DNA of 64,000 nucleotides from Runella rosea (GTDB lineage Bacteria; Bacteroidota; Bacteroidia; Cytophagales; Spirosomataceae). The notes under the pieces were generated by a model. It worked only from the letters and a program-made list of their open reading frames with translations. It did not search any database and was not told the DNA's origin. A program made the translations under genes and the position numbers. Of the stretch, positions 28,893-34,463 are shown in pieces (position 1 is the first letter of the stretch; each line of letters begins with the position of its first letter). The stretch is from positions 5,511,501-5,575,500 of the forward strand of contig NZ_CP030850.1 of NCBI RefSeq assembly GCF_003325355.1. The letters are read 5' to 3'.

Positions 28893-31448
28893 TTAATTAC
28901 TGCACGCCACATTCGCCCCAATTTTTGCCTCAAAATACTTCCCCATGCCCCTTGCCTCAAAGCCCGGCGATAAAAGGATGGCATTGGGTGCTTTGAAATC
29001 TACGGCACCGGCGGGGGCGAGGATCTTCGCGGTGGAAGTGATAGTTTGAATGGCCCCGCCCGTATAGGTGGGCGAGTCTATGGTGCCTGTGATGTGACTT
29101 GTAGCTACTTGTGAGGGCGTATTGCCCAAAAACTCATACGCTCCCATGTCGGCAGTGCCGTTGAAATTTCTAGGATTTCGATCTAAATCTAAGGGGCTGA
29201 TGTCGGTGTTTGTGCCTGCATTGATGGCTTTGCTGCACCATTTTAGGCGATAATCTCCTGCATCACTCCGCACCGTATTTGCTACCGGACTTACAAACTG
29301 TGGATTGGTAGTACCCACCAAATTGCCATTGGCAGTGCTGGTTTCGCCTTGTATTAAGCTGTTGGTGAAGGTATTAGTTGTAGCCGCTTGTATAGTATTT
29401 GAAATTCCAACATTAGCATTGTCTTTTATGATAGTGTTCTTTATTGTATTATCAAAAGGGGTAGAACTAAAATTGGTGGTAATGGATATCCCATTGATAC
29501 CATTTGAAGCGATAGTGCAATTGATAATATTTAAATCCGAATAGTAATTTATAAAAGAAATTCCGTGTTGCCCATTATTAGCAATCAAGCAATTTTGATA
29601 ATTTGAAGTCCCTTCATCGTCATATATTCCACTGCCACTGTTTCCTGTTATTATGCAATTTGCGACTACTTTATTTGAATTTCTAATATTTAAGCCTTCT
29701 TCATTATCTGTTATTCTGCAATTACTTATTTTGCAGTTTACGGAGTTGCCAAATATACCATCATAACGCCCCCCAATGACTTTAAATCCATCAAAAACAA
29801 CGTCATTGCCAATATTTACAACGAAATAAGAATTATCATTTCGATTTGAGGTAAAAACAAAAGGGGTGTCATTGCTTCCTAAATCGCCTGAAAGGGTAGT
29901 TTCATTAGTGCTATTTATCAATGCCAAATTGCGTTTGTTGATGCTTTTTTCAGTTCCCGCAAAACCACCGTAAATTCTCATCCCCGATAGGATATTGAAA
30001 TTATCATTGATATTGTTTGTGGTAGAAGATTTGTAAGCTGAGGTACCTTTGGCTACATAAATTTCAAAAAGATCGTTGCAGGTATTATCTGTTAGAGCAG
30101 ATCGTAGGTTATCATAGGCATTTGCCCAAGAACTACCATTTTTGTTGCCAATATTAGGTGTATTATTCACATATTTCACCTGCCCTGTTACAAAATTGGA
30201 GGCATCGCCTGTTTTGGCAAAGTTGTTTAATGTACCGTTATTGGCACTATTTGAGGCTTCGTTTATTTGGCTAATGAGGGTATTTGTGCCATGCGGTACG
30301 CCATTGCTGAAATTATAAGCAGCTTGTAAATTGGTAGCATTGGGGGTTTTGCAAAAGCGTTCATCGGCTAATTGTGTGGCGGTTTTGGCAACATTCCAAA
30401 TGCGTATTTCGTCTATTTCACCTTTGAAGTACCTCCCCTGAATACCCCTCACCCCAATGTATAAGGGTGAATTGTTAGTGGTAGTTGCATTCGTGTTATC
30501 AGTTACACTACCTTGCAAAATGCCATCTATATACAAACTCATGGTTTTAGGACTGCCGGATGCTACTGTCATGGCTACATGATGCCATTGGCCATCATTT
30601 ATTTTGGCAGTTGACATAATATTAGGGCCATTTGTGCCATCGTATCTGGCAATTTGTACTTTCCCGTTGTTAGCTCCTGCGGTTTGATTCAAATAACGCA
30701 TAACAAACGGATAGCCACCTGTTCCATCCCATTTTTCAAGAAAGTCATTGTCTTGCTGCCCAATATCTGTTTGCGTAGGGTCAGGCTTTACCCAACAAGT
30801 TACGGTAAACTCTTGATTGGCGGCAAAGTTGCCAACATTATTTGGTATCGAAACATAATCATTAACCCCATCCAAATGGAGGGCTACGTTTTGCGGGGTA
30901 TTGTCGCCTACCATAATTCCGGCAAGTGTTAGAAAGGCGGCAGGGCTTGGCGTAGTTGGAAAAGTGGCAGCTATCGAAACAATGTATTCATTTTCGTTTC
31001 CGGTAACGCTAAACCCTACAAAAGCACCACTGTTAAAGCCCCCCGTTTGGGTAGCCGTATTTCCCAAATTTGTGGTAGCTGTTAGTTGTATATCGTCAGA
31101 CGTAGGATTACCAAAGGTATTAAGTGCCACTGGTTGGCAAGAAAATTTTCGCACATTATTTCCATGCAGTTGAATGGAAATGGGGGTATTGGCGGTATTG
31201 GTAGAAATAGCGTTACTTCTATTGGTAATTCCCCCCACCGCCGAAACGGCGTAGCTAAAAACATTCTGAGGCGAAGGCCCCAACACCAAGTAGGGATTGG
31301 CTTGCACGCCATTAGAGAAGCCTTGCTGCGTAAAAGCATAGCCACCAATGCCATAAAAAGTGTTTCTCTGAGCAAAGTTGAAGGCTTGAATTTGTGCCTG
31401 TACTGCCCACGAGCAGGAAATGAAGAGGAAAAGGAATGAGATTTTCAT
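28893..31448 (-). CDS. LamG / right-handed beta-helix surface protein with Cys-ending tail
   Basis: The 851-residue protein starts with a signal peptide (MKISFLFLFISCSWAVQAQ). Residues about 190-355 form a LamG/concanavalin-like jelly roll (ALHLDGVNDYVSIPN, WHHVAMTVASGSPKTMSLYI, GEIDEIRIWNVAKT). Residues about 425-750 are a right-handed parallel beta-helix with repeated N-I-x-N-C-x-I turns (ISNCRITDNEEGLNIRNSN, VANCIITGNSGSGIYDDE). The last 80 residues resemble the C-terminal domain of the protein at the window start, with ILLSPGFEARG and a final ACSN. It is likely exported and displayed, binding or acting on polysaccharide. It is the last gene of a minus-strand series running from the LytTR gene at 34408. 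Confidence 0.87.
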   Translation of the reverse strand: MKISFLFLFISCSWAVQAQIQAFNFAQRNTFYGIGGYAFTQQGFSNGVQANPYLVLGPSPQNVFSYAVSAVGGITNRSNAISTNTANTPISIQLHGNNVRKFSCQPVALNTFGNPTSDDIQLTATTNLGNTATQTGGFNSGAFVGFSVTGNENEYIVSIAATFPTTPSPAAFLTLAGIMVGDNTPQNVALHLDGVNDYVSIPNNVGNFAANQEFTVTCWVKPDPTQTDIGQQDNDFLEKWDGTGGYPFVMRYLNQTAGANNGKVQIARYDGTNGPNIMSTAKINDGQWHHVAMTVASGSPKTMSLYIDGILQGSVTDNTNATTTNNSPLYIGVRGIQGRYFKGEIDEIRIWNVAKTATQLADERFCKTPNATNLQAAYNFSNGVPHGTNTLISQINEASNSANNGTLNNFAKTGDASNFVTGQVKYVNNTPNIGNKNGSSWANAYDNLRSALTDNTCNDLFEIYVAKGTSAYKSSTTNNINDNFNILSGMRIYGGFAGTEKSINKRNLALINSTNETTLSGDLGSNDTPFVFTSNRNDNSYFVVNIGNDVVFDGFKVIGGRYDGIFGNSVNCKISNCRITDNEEGLNIRNSNKVVANCIITGNSGSGIYDDEGTSNYQNCLIANNGQHGISFINYYSDLNIINCTIASNGINGISITTNFSSTPFDNTIKNTIIKDNANVGISNTIQAATTNTFTNSLIQGETSTANGNLVGTTNPQFVSPVANTVRSDAGDYRLKWCSKAINAGTNTDISPLDLDRNPRNFNGTADMGAYEFLGNTPSQVATSHITGTIDSPTYTGGAIQTITSTAKILAPAGAVDFKAPNAILLSPGFEARGMGKYFEAKIGANVACSN

Positions 31449-31555: not shown

Positions 31556-31867
31556 TCATTGCTTTATCACCAATACATTAATATTTGTACCACCCGTTAT
31601 TGTACCATTGTATTCCCGTCGGATTTCCCAAACGGCTCCGTCCCATTTGGCATAATAACTGGTACCCGTACCTCTACCAGTACCTGTGGCACGGGTAACA
31701 AATATCAAATCAGTTTGGGCGGTAGTAACTCTTGGAATAAATATTCCTTTGTTTGTAGTATTTACTTCGATAATCGCAGCGTTACTTGAAGATACCGTAA
31801 CACTCTGCCCAAAGGCCGTAAAAGCGACTAAAAATGTAATACTGAGGGTGATAAATGTTTTTATCAT
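31556..31867 (-). CDS. Small exported protein with tail-fibre-like motif
   Basis: The 103 residues include a signal peptide (MIKTFITLSITFLVAFTAFGQ). The mature part has TTNKGIFIPRVTTAQTDLI and SYYAKWDGAVWEI, matching the KGxLIPRxTTAQR...WDGxxW pattern that is common in long Bacteroidota surface proteins, here reduced to a single short domain. A hairpin nearly identical to the one between the two large paralogues lies upstream, and the beta-helix gene lies downstream. It may be a pared-down member of the same secreted set. Confidence 0.75.
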   Translation of the reverse strand: MIKTFITLSITFLVAFTAFGQSVTVSSSNAAIIEVNTTNKGIFIPRVTTAQTDLIFVTRATGTGRGTGTSYYAKWDGAVWEIRREYNGTITGGTNINVLVIKQ

Positions 31868-31906
31868 GGGGGTATTTTGATTTGTTTTTTAATTTTTTGT
31901 GCAGCC

Positions 31907-31952
31907 AAAAGCATTTGTTGGAGCGAATTTTAAATCGCTGACAGATGCTTTT
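31907..31952. repeat. Two-tier hairpin, copy 1 of a duplicated spacer
   Basis: An outer 11-bp stem (AAAAGCATTTG with CAGATGCTTTT, one wobble) encloses an inner AGCGA/TCGCT stem. The same structure with matching flanks occurs at 32977-33026. It may end transcription of the gene above it or stabilise its 3' end. The surrounding spacer sequence is duplicated too. Confidence 0.7.
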
Positions 31953-31982
31953 AAATGAAATCAATAGATGAAATAAGAGTTT

Positions 31983-32951
31983 TTATTCCTTATATGTAAC
32001 AAGTATTCTTATGGGTTTATTAAGAATATTAGCCCCGCTATTCAAGTAAACTTCGATAAAAGTGTGGTTAATTAAATAAGAATAACTAACTCCGTCTCCC
32101 CGAGGAAAGCGAGGTGGAATTTGTGAAAGTAATCCAGATTCTATGGCTTCCACAAAAATAGCTACATCAAGTATTTTGTTTGGAGTTAATCCATGAGGCA
32201 CAAATGTAGAACCACCATCTGCAACAGCTGTATTAAAGCCGGTAATTTCCTTTTGTTTAATGGCAGGGGCAGCAGAACCTAATTTGGTAAAACCATTTAC
32301 TTCTAATTTAGCACCGGGAAACGCCCCTATCCCTACATTACCAGTTCCGGTAATTCGCATCAATTCGTTTGAATTAGTTGTGCTTGTACCCGCATAGAAG
32401 ACATGACTATTATTTAAAGAAGGGATTTGATACCTGAGTGTCTGGGCATTTACGCCAAAACCCATGAATTGATTTTCATTGTTTGCATCTTCATAAAGCA
32501 ATATTCTACGGTTATTATTGGTATTGCTGAAAGATAATTCTCCGTTTGGAGTGCTTGTACCAATGCCCACGTTGCCGTTTTCGGCTATTCTCATTCTTTC
32601 ACGCACAAAGGCACTATTGAATGGTGTAGTGTTAAATAAGATTTCTGTTCCAAAATTAATGATATTAAAATTCCCGGAAGCTCTAAACTCAATTGATGCG
32701 TTAGGGGTTGTGGTAAAGAAACTTCCACCATAACCATAACCATACATACCAGCCAGTATTTTATTATTTAAAGTAGCTGTCGGAGAGGAAGAATTTCCCT
32801 CACTATGGTATCCAGAAAAACTTGCTATCTGACTGCCATAAGTACGTAATGAAACTTGATTGGACGAGGTAGGCACAAGCGTAATGCTTTGCCCCAAGGC
32901 AGTACAAATAGTAAAACAGGCAATGCCAAAGGTGATAATTGTTTTTTTCAT
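31983..32951 (-). CDS. Secreted tail-fibre-like repeat protein, copy A
   Basis: A 322-residue exported protein (signal peptide MKKTIITFGIACFTICTALGQ) with two GNVGIG motifs (ENGNVGIGTSTPNGELSF, GTGNVGIGAFPGAKLEV) that are typical of trimeric fibre-like surface proteins in Bacteroidota. Residues 1-226 are identical to copy B (33049-34029) except Ser33/Leu33. From about residue 227 the two C-termini diverge to roughly family-level similarity (PHGLTPNKILDVAIFVEA against PHGLTPSKILSVNIFVEA). There is no chaperone domain of the S74 peptidase kind. The pattern suggests a constant stalk with a variable tip; the function (adhesion, recognition) is inferred. Confidence 0.85.
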   Translation of the reverse strand: MKKTIITFGIACFTICTALGQSITLVPTSSNQVSLRTYGSQIASFSGYHSEGNSSSPTATLNNKILAGMYGYGYGGSFFTTTPNASIEFRASGNFNIINFGTEILFNTTPFNSAFVRERMRIAENGNVGIGTSTPNGELSFSNTNNNRRILLYEDANNENQFMGFGVNAQTLRYQIPSLNNSHVFYAGTSTTNSNELMRITGTGNVGIGAFPGAKLEVNGFTKLGSAAPAIKQKEITGFNTAVADGGSTFVPHGLTPNKILDVAIFVEAIESGLLSQIPPRFPRGDGVSYSYLINHTFIEVYLNSGANILNKPIRILVTYKE

Positions 32952-32976
32952 GGGGGTATTTTGATTTTTTATGCAG

Positions 32977-33026
32977 CCAAAAGCATCTGTTGGAGCGAAT
33001 TTTAAATCGCTAACTGATGCTTTTGG
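32977..33026. repeat. Two-tier hairpin, copy 2 of a duplicated spacer
   Basis: CCAAAAGCATC pairs perfectly with GATGCTTTTGG and encloses AGCGA/TCGCT. It lies between the stop of copy B and the start of copy A and is nearly identical to 31907-31952, so the duplication unit included the spacer as well as the gene. Confidence 0.75.
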
Positions 33027-33048
33027 ATAATAAATAATTTCTTTGTTT

Positions 33049-34029
33049 TTATTCCATGTAAGTAATGAATACTTTTATGGGTTTCGATAAAATATTTCCA
33101 GAGGTTGTATTAGTAAGCGTTAATTCAATATTGGTCGGTGTAACAGCATAACTATATAGCATTTCGGCAGAACCTACATAATTCGGTGGAGTTTGATAGA
33201 GCAAACCTGAAAAGCTTTCAACAGCCTCTACAAAAATATTTACAGAAAGTATTTTTGAAGGGGTAAGACCATGAGGCATCAATCTACTGGCACCCTCAGA
33301 AGATGGTGTATTAAAACCGGTAATGAGCTTTTGTTTGATGGCAGGGGCATCGGACCCTAATTTGGTAAAACCATTTACTTCTAATTTAGCGCCGGGAAAC
33401 GCCCCTATCCCTACATTACCTGTTCCGGTAATTCGCATCAATTCGTTTGAATTAGTTGTGCTTGTACCCGCATAGAAGACATGACTATTATTTAAAGAAG
33501 GGATTTGATACCTGAGTGTCTGGGCATTTACGCCAAAACCCATGAATTGATTTTCATTGTTTGCATCTTCATAAAGCAATATTCTACGGTTATTATTGGT
33601 ATTGCTGAAAGATAATTCTCCGTTTGGAGTGCTCGTACCAATGCCCACGTTGCCGTTTTCGGCTATTCTCATTCTTTCACGCACAAAGGCACTATTGAAT
33701 GGTGTAGTGTTAAATAAGATTTCTGTTCCAAAATTAATGATATTAAAATTCCCGGAAGCTCTAAACTCAATTGATGCGTTAGGGGTTGTGGTAAAGAAAC
33801 TTCCACCATAACCATAACCATACATACCAGCCAGTATTTTATTATTTAAAGTAGCTGTCGGAGAGGAAGAATTTCCCTCACTATGGTATCCAGAAAAACT
33901 TGCTATCTGACTGCCATAAGTACGTAATAAAACTTGATTGGACGAGGTAGGCACAAGCGTAATGCTTTGCCCCAAGGCAGTACAAATAGTAAAACAGGCA
34001 ATGCCAAAGGTGATAATTGTTTTTTTCAT
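33049..34029 (-). CDS. Secreted tail-fibre-like repeat protein, copy B
   Basis: The 326-residue product is the tandem twin of the gene at 31983-32951. Signal peptide, both GNVGIG repeats and the central region are the same to within a single residue over about 226 residues, and the DNA differs at only a handful of positions, including silent ones. The last 100 residues differ strongly (FSGLLYQTPPNYVGSAEMLY here, SGLLSQIPPRFPRGDGVSY in copy A), yet both keep a final strand KPI(R/K)(I/V). It is the first of the secreted genes after the LytTR gene, which ends 46 bases upstream. Confidence 0.85.
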   Translation of the reverse strand: MKKTIITFGIACFTICTALGQSITLVPTSSNQVLLRTYGSQIASFSGYHSEGNSSSPTATLNNKILAGMYGYGYGGSFFTTTPNASIEFRASGNFNIINFGTEILFNTTPFNSAFVRERMRIAENGNVGIGTSTPNGELSFSNTNNNRRILLYEDANNENQFMGFGVNAQTLRYQIPSLNNSHVFYAGTSTTNSNELMRITGTGNVGIGAFPGAKLEVNGFTKLGSDAPAIKQKLITGFNTPSSEGASRLMPHGLTPSKILSVNIFVEAVESFSGLLYQTPPNYVGSAEMLYSYAVTPTNIELTLTNTTSGNILSKPIKVFITYME

Positions 34030-34075
34030 GAGTATTTGATTTGTTTATATTGATATTTTGTGGTGAAAAGAAAGT

Positions 34076-34408
34076 TTAAGACAACACAGCTACTTTTACC
34101 ATTGTGCGTTTTCGTCGAGATACTTGTGCCAAGAAGCCATCGGTCATTTCTACGTAATATCTGTCAAAAGCTCTGATGTAGTGGTGGTTGAGTAGGTGTT
34201 GTTTGTTTACGCGCACAAACGTGTCGGGCAGCAACGATTCATAAAACCCAATACTTTTGGATGTGAGGATTTTGCGGCCATCGGCCAGTACAAAATGGGT
34301 GTAGTTGCCGCTGCCTTCGAGCCGTACGATGTCGGTAATGGGCAGGTGTACGGTTCCGCGTAAAATAGTGAGGGTGTGGGAAGCAGAGTTTGAGCTAAAT
34401 GCGGTCAT
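34076..34408 (-). CDS. Stand-alone LytTR DNA-binding protein
   Basis: The 110-residue protein is nearly all LytTR domain, with LPITDIVRLEGSGNYTHFVL, GRKILTSKSIGFYESLLP and FVRVNKQHLLNHHYI, but no receiver or membrane part. ATG 34408 directly follows a possible GTG. Such free LytTR proteins in Bacteroidota regulate neighbouring operons. Here the secreted fibre-like genes follow on the same strand after 46 bases, and the NarL-type two-component genes lie divergently. Without a receiver, its activity may depend on level or on heteromeric partners. Confidence 0.87.
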   Translation of the reverse strand: MTAFSSNSASHTLTILRGTVHLPITDIVRLEGSGNYTHFVLADGRKILTSKSIGFYESLLPDTFVRVNKQHLLNHHYIRAFDRYYVEMTDGFLAQVSRRKRTMVKVAVLS

Positions 34409-34463
34409 CACCTATTTTGAGTATATTTGATATCACAAAATTGTTCATTTAGTACAGTGCAAT

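What the first reader, a model, noticed from the sequence alone, without database searches (positions are those of the whole stretch)
31983..34029. Twin secreted proteins with constant body and abruptly variable C-terminus
Two tandem genes encode proteins identical in 225 of the first 226 residues and nearly identical in DNA, then diverge sharply in the last 100 residues. Purifying selection alone would not give silent-site identity in one part and strong divergence in the other, so either a recent duplication was followed by tip replacement or gene conversion keeps the body uniform. Fibre-like GNVGIG motifs suggest a stalk with an exchangeable recognition tip. With the LytTR gene just upstream, this could be a small surface-variation system.
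Basis: partly seen in the sequence, partly recalled or inferred. Interest (0 to 1): 0.75.

Follow-up and report, generated by a model that had tools for sequence, protein, structure and literature searches.

The report
Twin fibre genes with overwritten stalks
Two neighbouring genes of a Runella bacterium make phage-like fibre proteins whose different tips are the old, inherited part, while their shared stalk is a recent replacement present in both genes, the reverse of a fixed stalk with swapped tips.

Summary
In detail: genes B (33049-34029, minus) and A (31983-32951, minus) agree in 225 of 226 residues up to a hinge; their tips are 57% identical. Runella sp. CRIBMP has both genes at the same locus. 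Tips match by position (B 96%, A 77% amino-acid identity; dS 0.26, 0.31) and leaders at about 89%, but stalks only at 46-50% and 21-22% in their two halves, while the two window stalks differ at 3 of about 148 silent sites. Informative sites: 163 of 163 before the hinge group by species, 66 of 67 after it by position. So old tips stayed and a new signal-plus-stalk block sits in both genes, most likely through gene conversion. Gene C lacks its stalk but keeps both ends; another locus in three other Runella genomes shows an exchanged middle module. Two control genes show no such drop. No spare tips were found in the genome. The stalk is related to a Bdellovibrio MAT fibre; the tip domain is shared with phages. 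Donor, polarity and adhesive function are inferred.

The parts
34076..34411 (-). LytTR DNA-binding-domain gene (111 aa, GTG start), upstream of the twins, possible regulator
   Evidence: Pfam LytTR 2.8e-12; an orthologue stands in the same place in CRIBMP
34030..34075 (-). Leader of gene B, orthologous, outside the replaced block
   Evidence: 41/46 identical to the CRIBMP leader; unlike the leader of A
33370..34029 (-). Gene B signal and stalk (codons 1-220): the replaced and homogenised block
   Evidence: 99.2-100% nt identity to A in three parts, but 46% (first stalk half) and 22% (second half) aa identity to CRIBMP B; residues 40-141 match Bdellovibrio fibre Bd1334 (PDB 8OML), E 2.4e-13
33326..33371 (-). 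Gene B hinge FTKLGSDAPAIKQK, where the signal changes from species to position
   Evidence: breakpoint between columns 658 and 703
33049..33369 (-). Gene B tip domain
   Evidence: 96% aa to CRIBMP B tip, dS 0.26, dN 0.018; AlphaFold pLDDT 88
32952..33048 (-). B-A intergenic stretch with hairpin
   Evidence: 86/97 aligned bases identical to CRIBMP, one gap of 12 set aside; fold z -6.7
32292..32951 (-). Gene A signal and stalk, the twin of B's
32248..32293 (-). Gene A hinge
   Evidence: breakpoint between columns 658 and 703
31983..32291 (-). Gene A tip domain
   Evidence: 77% aa to CRIBMP A tip, dS 0.31, dN 0.140
31868..31982 (-). A-C intergenic stretch with similar hairpin
   Evidence: 104/115 aligned bases identical to CRIBMP, a gap of 7 set aside; fold z -4.3
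31556..31867 (-). Gene C (103 aa): signal and C-terminal end only; the stalk of the 308-aa CRIBMP orthologue is missing
   Evidence: both ends align to CRIBMP C, with about 63 nt here in place of about 678 nt there; the full-length form is also in G012

Best explanation
A small operon-like cluster (LytTR gene, B, A, C) of a Runella species encodes short secreted fibres: signal, beta-rich stalk of the phage-fibre / MAT type, and a roughly 100-residue C-terminal tip. SHOWN: the tips and leaders of A and B match the sister species by position; the whole signal-plus-stalk block, from the start codon to the hinge, differs from that of the sister species and is nearly identical in A and B. INFERRED: in this lineage one gene acquired a new stalk by recombination, and gene conversion then copied it into its neighbour, with ends in two stretches that the copies share (around the ATG, and the roughly 45-bp FTKLGSDAPAIKQK hinge). 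Gene C lost its stalk. INFERRED function: trimeric surface or released fibres carrying two different binding tips on a common, replaceable shaft; uniform shafts would let both use the same anchor or let the two chains co-assemble.
For: Segment divergences, four genes: tip wB-rB 96% aa, dS 0.26; tip wA-rA 77%, dS 0.31; first stalk half wA-wB dS 0.01, window to CRIBMP dS 1.34-1.41; second half 21-22% aa. Informative sites: before the hinge 163 of 163 group by species, after it 66 of 67 by position. Leaders and intergenics 41/46, 86/97 and 104/115 aligned bases identical to CRIBMP. Of 5 other related genes in the own genome, 2 were compared with CRIBMP: 90-nt windows stay at 72-99% and 90-99%, while the A/B stalk runs at 31-78% in 45-nt windows; so the stalk is replaced and not merely fast. 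Recurrence: rA-rB share their second stalk half (92.5% aa, against 52-55% in first half and tip); at a second locus, G004 against G010 and G001 falls to 40.5 and 41.4% nt in one block bounded by GNVGIG-type motifs, with 75-88% in the other five segments; gene C lacks the stalk of its orthologues. Fibre nature: phmmer to Bd1334 E 2.4e-13 and T5 L-shaped fibre E 0.004; PHROG tail-fibre families; tip domain in 13 viral contigs; tip model with weak matches to phage and pyocin fibre ends.
Against: The stalk donor was not found. Only one other species has the pair, so the order of events rests on parsimony: CRIBMP A and B look like old paralogues (dS 0.77 in the first stalk half) and gene C is full length in two species, but a replacement on the CRIBMP side of A and B is not excluded. 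Gene conversion is inferred; import of an already homogenised pair would look the same. Tip A is not strongly conserved (77% aa, dN 0.140 to dS 0.31), so 'fixed tip' fits B far better than A. The 514-aa control is not even along its length: 72-81% at nt 90-450 against 89-99% after it, and the closest partner changes there. The full-length AlphaFold model is poor (pLDDT 49). Surface display, trimerisation and binding were not tested. In another genome with two tip genes side by side (G385) the proteins before the tips differ but for about 97 nt at 71% identity, and L103 (G1025) showed no direct repeat of 60 nt or more, so homogenised stalks are not general.
Confidence: 0.75

Rival explanations
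1. Recent duplication of one gene followed by replacement of the tip of one copy.
For: Twin stalks at 99% nt identity with abrupt divergence at the hinge are what this predicts inside one genome.
Against: Both tips, in the same order and with their own leaders and 3' intergenic stretches, are already in CRIBMP at 96% and 77% aa identity, so two genes with two tips predate the species split, while the stalk identity does not.
Confidence: 0.03
2. Horizontal import: the stalk regions of both genes came from an unsampled strain where the stalks were already alike, with no conversion in this lineage.
For: The new stalk has no close source in 13 genomes of the genus (non-self matches at most 53% identical), and a related stalk module sits in a tail-gene region of the same genome.
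Against: It needs separate crossovers at matching places in each gene, since the B tip and B-A intergenic stretch between the two stalks are orthologous to CRIBMP at 93.4% nt and 86/97. It only moves the homogenisation to another strain.
Confidence: 0.15
3. Surface-variation system: tips are switched from silent cassettes or by a programmed recombinase.
For: Modular fibres, a regulator next door, shared hinge sequences.
Against: DNA searches of the own genome with gene B and with the A tip find only these two copies; tips match by position between two species. No recombinase was looked for.
Confidence: 0.05
4. Phage remnant: the genes are decayed tail-fibre genes with no function in the host.
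For: Stalk and tip are phage-fibre-like; gene C is shortened.
Against: Frames intact, secretion-type N-termini by inspection, tip B under purifying selection (dN 0.018, dS 0.26); none of the four neighbours scanned in Pfam (C, the Laminin-G gene, LytTR, response regulator) looks like a phage gene; gene order held in CRIBMP.
Confidence: 0.1

Closest known systems
Mosaic adhesive trimer (MAT) fibres of Bdellovibrio bacteriovorus, in particular the pair Bd2133 / Bd1334 (PMC10769870; abstract, sections 10-13 and 16, and one passage of section 43 seen)
   Same: Secreted fibre with a beta-rich stalk related in sequence to Bd1334; pairs with a shared fibre and different non-S74 C-terminal tips; the paper infers that the C-terminus was exchanged.
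   Different: Here 322-326 aa against typically about 1,000 aa in the paper; no sequence match of the tips to any solved chain; comparison between species shows the stalk, not the tip, as the exchanged part; not a Bdellovibrio.
Phage tail fibres, including T5 L-shaped fibre and R-type pyocin fibre ends
   Same: Stalk matches; tip domain in 13 viral contigs and one phage species, PaV-LD (two records); the tip model gives weak fold matches to pyocin and AP22 fibre ends and to an H-type lectin.
   Different: Secretion-type N-terminus (by inspection), bacterial locus without recognised tail genes; fold matches are below Z 8 and may mean only a common arrangement.
Concerted evolution of paralogues by gene conversion (for example Opa or tuf genes; recalled, no call)
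   Same: Near-identical tracts with diverged ends, grouping by species in the tract and by position outside.
   Different: The tract is one module of a fibre with ends at the start codon and at the stalk/tip hinge, and the homogenised sequence is itself foreign to the sister species.

Membership tests
MAT superfamily | Stalk homologous to MAT beta-helical fibre | tested here: met
   phmmer to Bd1334 (8OML) E 2.4e-13, residues 40-141
MAT superfamily | Conserved beta-rich domain of about 130 aa right after the signal peptide (all 21 B. bacteriovorus MATs, per section 10) | not tested
   the sequence of that domain was not compared
MAT superfamily | C-terminal S74 domain or an alternative independently folding tip | tested here: met
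   no Pfam family, so no S74, in A or B at E up to 10; a separate tip domain is predicted at pLDDT 88
MAT superfamily | Length: typically about 1,000 aa, shorter ones 626-843 aa, in the paper | tested here: not met
   322 and 326 aa
MAT superfamily | Trimer on the cell surface | not testable with these tools
   monomer prediction only; full-length model poor
Silent-cassette or shufflon-type tip variation | Further tip copies in the genome | tested here: not met
   only the two known copies at DNA level
H-type lectin / pyocin fibre foot fold | Tip shares the fold | tested here: inconclusive
   VIA-align Z 5.0 (2ccv), 5.7 (6ct8), 5.1 (4mtm); best Z 6.5

The most novel reading that the evidence does not exclude
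Fibre families may diversify 'from the handle end': tips are kept as binding specificities, while the shaft is repeatedly replaced with phage-fibre modules and conversion spreads the new shaft to the tip genes of the cluster, so that they are re-shafted together. Shared fibres with different tips, as in Bd2133/Bd1334, would then not by themselves show tip swapping.
Probability: 0.3. Interest if true: 0.7.

Novelty: new variant of a known kind. Interest (0 to 1): 0.52.

Why it matters
A shared stalk with different tips within one genome was read as tip exchange in the MAT paper (PMC10769870, section 13 and the Fig. 5 legend in section 12). Here a sister species shows that the same picture arose by overwriting the stalk above old tips. 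That gives a simple test (compare tips and stalks by position between species) for MAT fibres, phage fibres and other modular adhesins, and it points to pressure on shafts, for example from anchors, phages or predators, as a possible driver of their evolution.

Tried and rejected
Silent tip cassettes: DNA searches of the own genome found only the two known copies. A plasmid source: no match in the plasmid collection. A direct viral relative of gene A: 10 stretches matched a pattern, none confirmed. A close source of the stalk in the genus: non-self matches are at most 53% identical. A dispersed hairpin repeat: the core 18-mer, with up to 1 mismatch, occurs twice in the own genome and in none of the 12 other genomes of the genus, so it is a local element; in CRIBMP the fold is weaker, z -2.2 and -3.4. 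Homogenised twins elsewhere: tip searches matched 16 of 390 (order, profile A3), 11 of 395 (class, A5) and 3 of 395 (phylum, A5) genomes, the sets overlapping. Of tip pairs within about 3 kb outside Runella in those lists I examined two: G385, where the proteins before the tips differ but for about 97 nt at 71%, and G1025, with no direct repeat of 60 nt or more. The full-length structure model (pLDDT 49) was not used. Fold search of the tip: no PDB match at E 0.001 or better; families not listed are not excluded. Only 2 of 5 other related genes of the own genome served as controls. Fetched but not read: L029-L035 (7 of 15), L093-L097 and L099 (6 of 11), L102. Literature: seven searches; their listings showed no paper on stalk replacement under fixed tips or on such Runella fibres; only PMC10769870 was opened (abstract, sections 10, 11, 12, 13 and 16, and one passage of section 43).

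Full report
CHECK OF THE OBSERVATION. Genes B (33049-34029) and A (31983-32951) lie in tandem on the minus strand, with a LytTR-domain gene upstream (34076-34411) and a short gene C (31556-31867) downstream. Their first 226 residues are identical but for one (residue 34). In DNA, codons 1-220 differ at 3 of about 148 synonymous sites, while the tips (97 aligned codons) are 57% identical in protein with dS 1.06. Identity begins at the ATG; the two leaders differ. In the own genome gene B DNA matches only itself and gene A, in a contig of 6.8 Mb.

THE SISTER SPECIES. The search for related loci returned the same locus in Runella sp. CRIBMP (L036; the same contig as G011:C53). Gene order is held: sensor kinase, response regulator, LytTR, B, A, C, and a Laminin-G / beta-helix gene. 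The genomes are placed in one genus, so the window is from a Runella species by inference. Segment by segment: tip wB-rB 96.0% aa, nt 93.4%, dS 0.26, dN 0.018; tip wA-rA 76.8% aa, nt 84.2%, dS 0.31, dN 0.140; cross pairs of tips 55-57%. First stalk half (codons 23-135): wA-wB 99.1% aa; window to CRIBMP 46-50%, dS 1.34-1.41; rA-rB 52%, dS 0.77. Second half (136-220): wA-wB 100% aa; window to CRIBMP 21-22%; rA-rB 92.5%, dS 0.52. Of informative sites in the four-gene codon alignment, 163 of 163 before the hinge group by species and 66 of 67 after it group by position, one supporting the third grouping; 0 of 10,000 permutations reach the contrast. Caveats: sites are treated as independent, and because the window stalks are almost identical, the position grouping is nearly impossible there; the weight lies on the large divergence between species in the stalk against the small one in tip and leader.

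FLANKS AND CONTROLS. Leaders and intergenics of B, A and C are 41/46, 86/97 and 104/115 aligned bases identical to CRIBMP, gaps set aside. Of the 5 other related genes in the own genome, two were compared with CRIBMP and G012: the 514-aa gene is 87.8% identical to CRIBMP with 90-nt windows of 72-99%, lowest at nt 90-450, where the closest partner also changes; the 292-aa gene is 95.8% with windows of 90-99%. The A/B stalk runs at 31-78% in 45-nt windows. So the first control is not even along its length, but neither falls near the A/B stalk, and the block there was replaced.

RECURRENCE. (a) CRIBMP's own pair shares one stalk module (second half, 92.5% aa). Its dS (0.52) exceeds that of the orthologous tips (0.26-0.31), so this sharing is probably older than the species split. 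(b) Gene C: CRIBMP and G012 have a 308-309-aa form, 288 of 313 alignment positions identical; the window form is 103 aa, with both ends orthologous and about 63 nt in place of about 678 nt. So 3 of 3 genes of the cluster differ from CRIBMP in their stalk. (c) At another locus, G010, G001 and G004 carry an orthologous gene with the same tip family; G004 against the other two falls to 40.5 and 41.4% nt identity in one middle block that starts after one GNVGIG-type motif and ends at the next, while the other five segments, from the upstream 200 nt to the tip, stay at 75-88%.

WHAT THE PARTS ARE. By inspection the N-terminus is a secretion signal (no predictor run). Stalk residues 40-141 match the Bdellovibrio MAT fibre Bd1334 (PDB 8OML, E 2.4e-13) and, weakly, the T5 L-shaped fibre (E 0.004); a PHROG tail-fibre family matches A at 1.8e-8 and B at 4.7e-9; 11 phage records match the stalk, all under 60% identity. 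The second stalk half is related to CRIBMP gene C (56%) and to a 349-aa gene (50%) in a prophage-like region of the same genome; of 8 proteins of that region scanned, two matched tape-measure and head-protease families, and the 349-aa gene itself matched none. The tip matches no solved chain by sequence and no Pfam family convincingly (of 18 members two had single weak matches, best E 0.026). It occurs in 13 viral contigs, in Planktothrix phage PaV-LD, where one of two records calls the protein head decoration protein, and on proteins of very different length in scattered relatives (16 of 390 genomes of the order). The tip model (pLDDT 88) best matches an unnamed viral entry, G9BWE7 (38% identity, TM 0.82; probably the PaV-LD protein, by inference), and, weakly, pyocin, AP22 and H-type lectin folds (Z 5.0-5.7), which may be only a common arrangement.

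INTERPRETATION. Shown: tips and leaders are positional orthologues; the signal-stalk block differs from the sister species and is almost identical in the two window genes. Inferred: replacement in one gene and gene conversion to the other, ending in stretches that the copies share (around the ATG, and the hinge). In silent-site terms the homogenisation is recent, about 0.02 against 0.26-0.31 for the species split. Inferred function: short trimeric adhesive fibres with two tips on one common shaft, perhaps controlled by the LytTR protein.

AGAINST. No donor; only one sister species with both genes; order of events by parsimony; tip A itself changes fairly fast (dN 0.140 to dS 0.31); no experiment; and no homogenised stalks in the two tandem tip pairs outside Runella that I examined.

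RELATION TO KNOWN SYSTEMS. MAT fibres are the closest relatives (PMC10769870; abstract, sections 10-13 and 16 and one passage of section 43 seen). There Bd2133 and Bd1334 share 75% in the fibre with different tips, and the paper infers an exchange of the C-terminus. The Runella locus shows that such a pair can also arise by overwriting the stalk. It works like a short MAT fibre; strict membership is not claimed, because the length differs and the N-terminal domain was not tested.

Noticed in passing
L026 7746-8795 (G000:C1, near 6,622,745): A prophage-like region (tape-measure and head-protease families) holds a 349-aa gene whose middle is related to the second stalk half of genes A and B.
   Followed up: partly
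window 28893-31448: 851-aa secreted protein with Laminin_G_3 and beta-helix domains next to gene C; G012 has two such genes side by side and no match to the A and B tips.
   Followed up: no
window 31900-31952 and 32972-33024: Two nearly identical intergenic hairpins upstream of C and A; the 18-base core (up to 1 mismatch) occurs nowhere else in 13 genomes of the genus.
   Followed up: partly
L028 7300-8178, L091, L092: The 292-aa tip-family gene is 100% identical in DNA between CRIBMP (G011) and G012 but 95.8% to the window, suggesting recent exchange or close kinship of those two.
   Followed up: no
L023, L025, L024, alignment A4 columns 900-1020: A second mosaic patch: G010 against G001 falls to 73-79% there while G010 against G004 stays at 83-88%.
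   Followed up: no
L027 7810-9354, alignment A6 columns 90-450: The 514-aa related gene has a more diverged stretch in which the closest partner of each sequence changes, another possible exchanged segment.
   Followed up: no
G000:C1:35128-35445 and G000:C1:6790809-6791126: Two distant places match gene B with identical scores and frame lengths (439 aa), probably a duplicated fibre gene.
   Followed up: no
L080 3778-6312 and L079 5038-6309: Two viral contigs share the tip and a short stretch before it on otherwise different fibre proteins, so modular exchange may occur in phages too.
   Followed up: no
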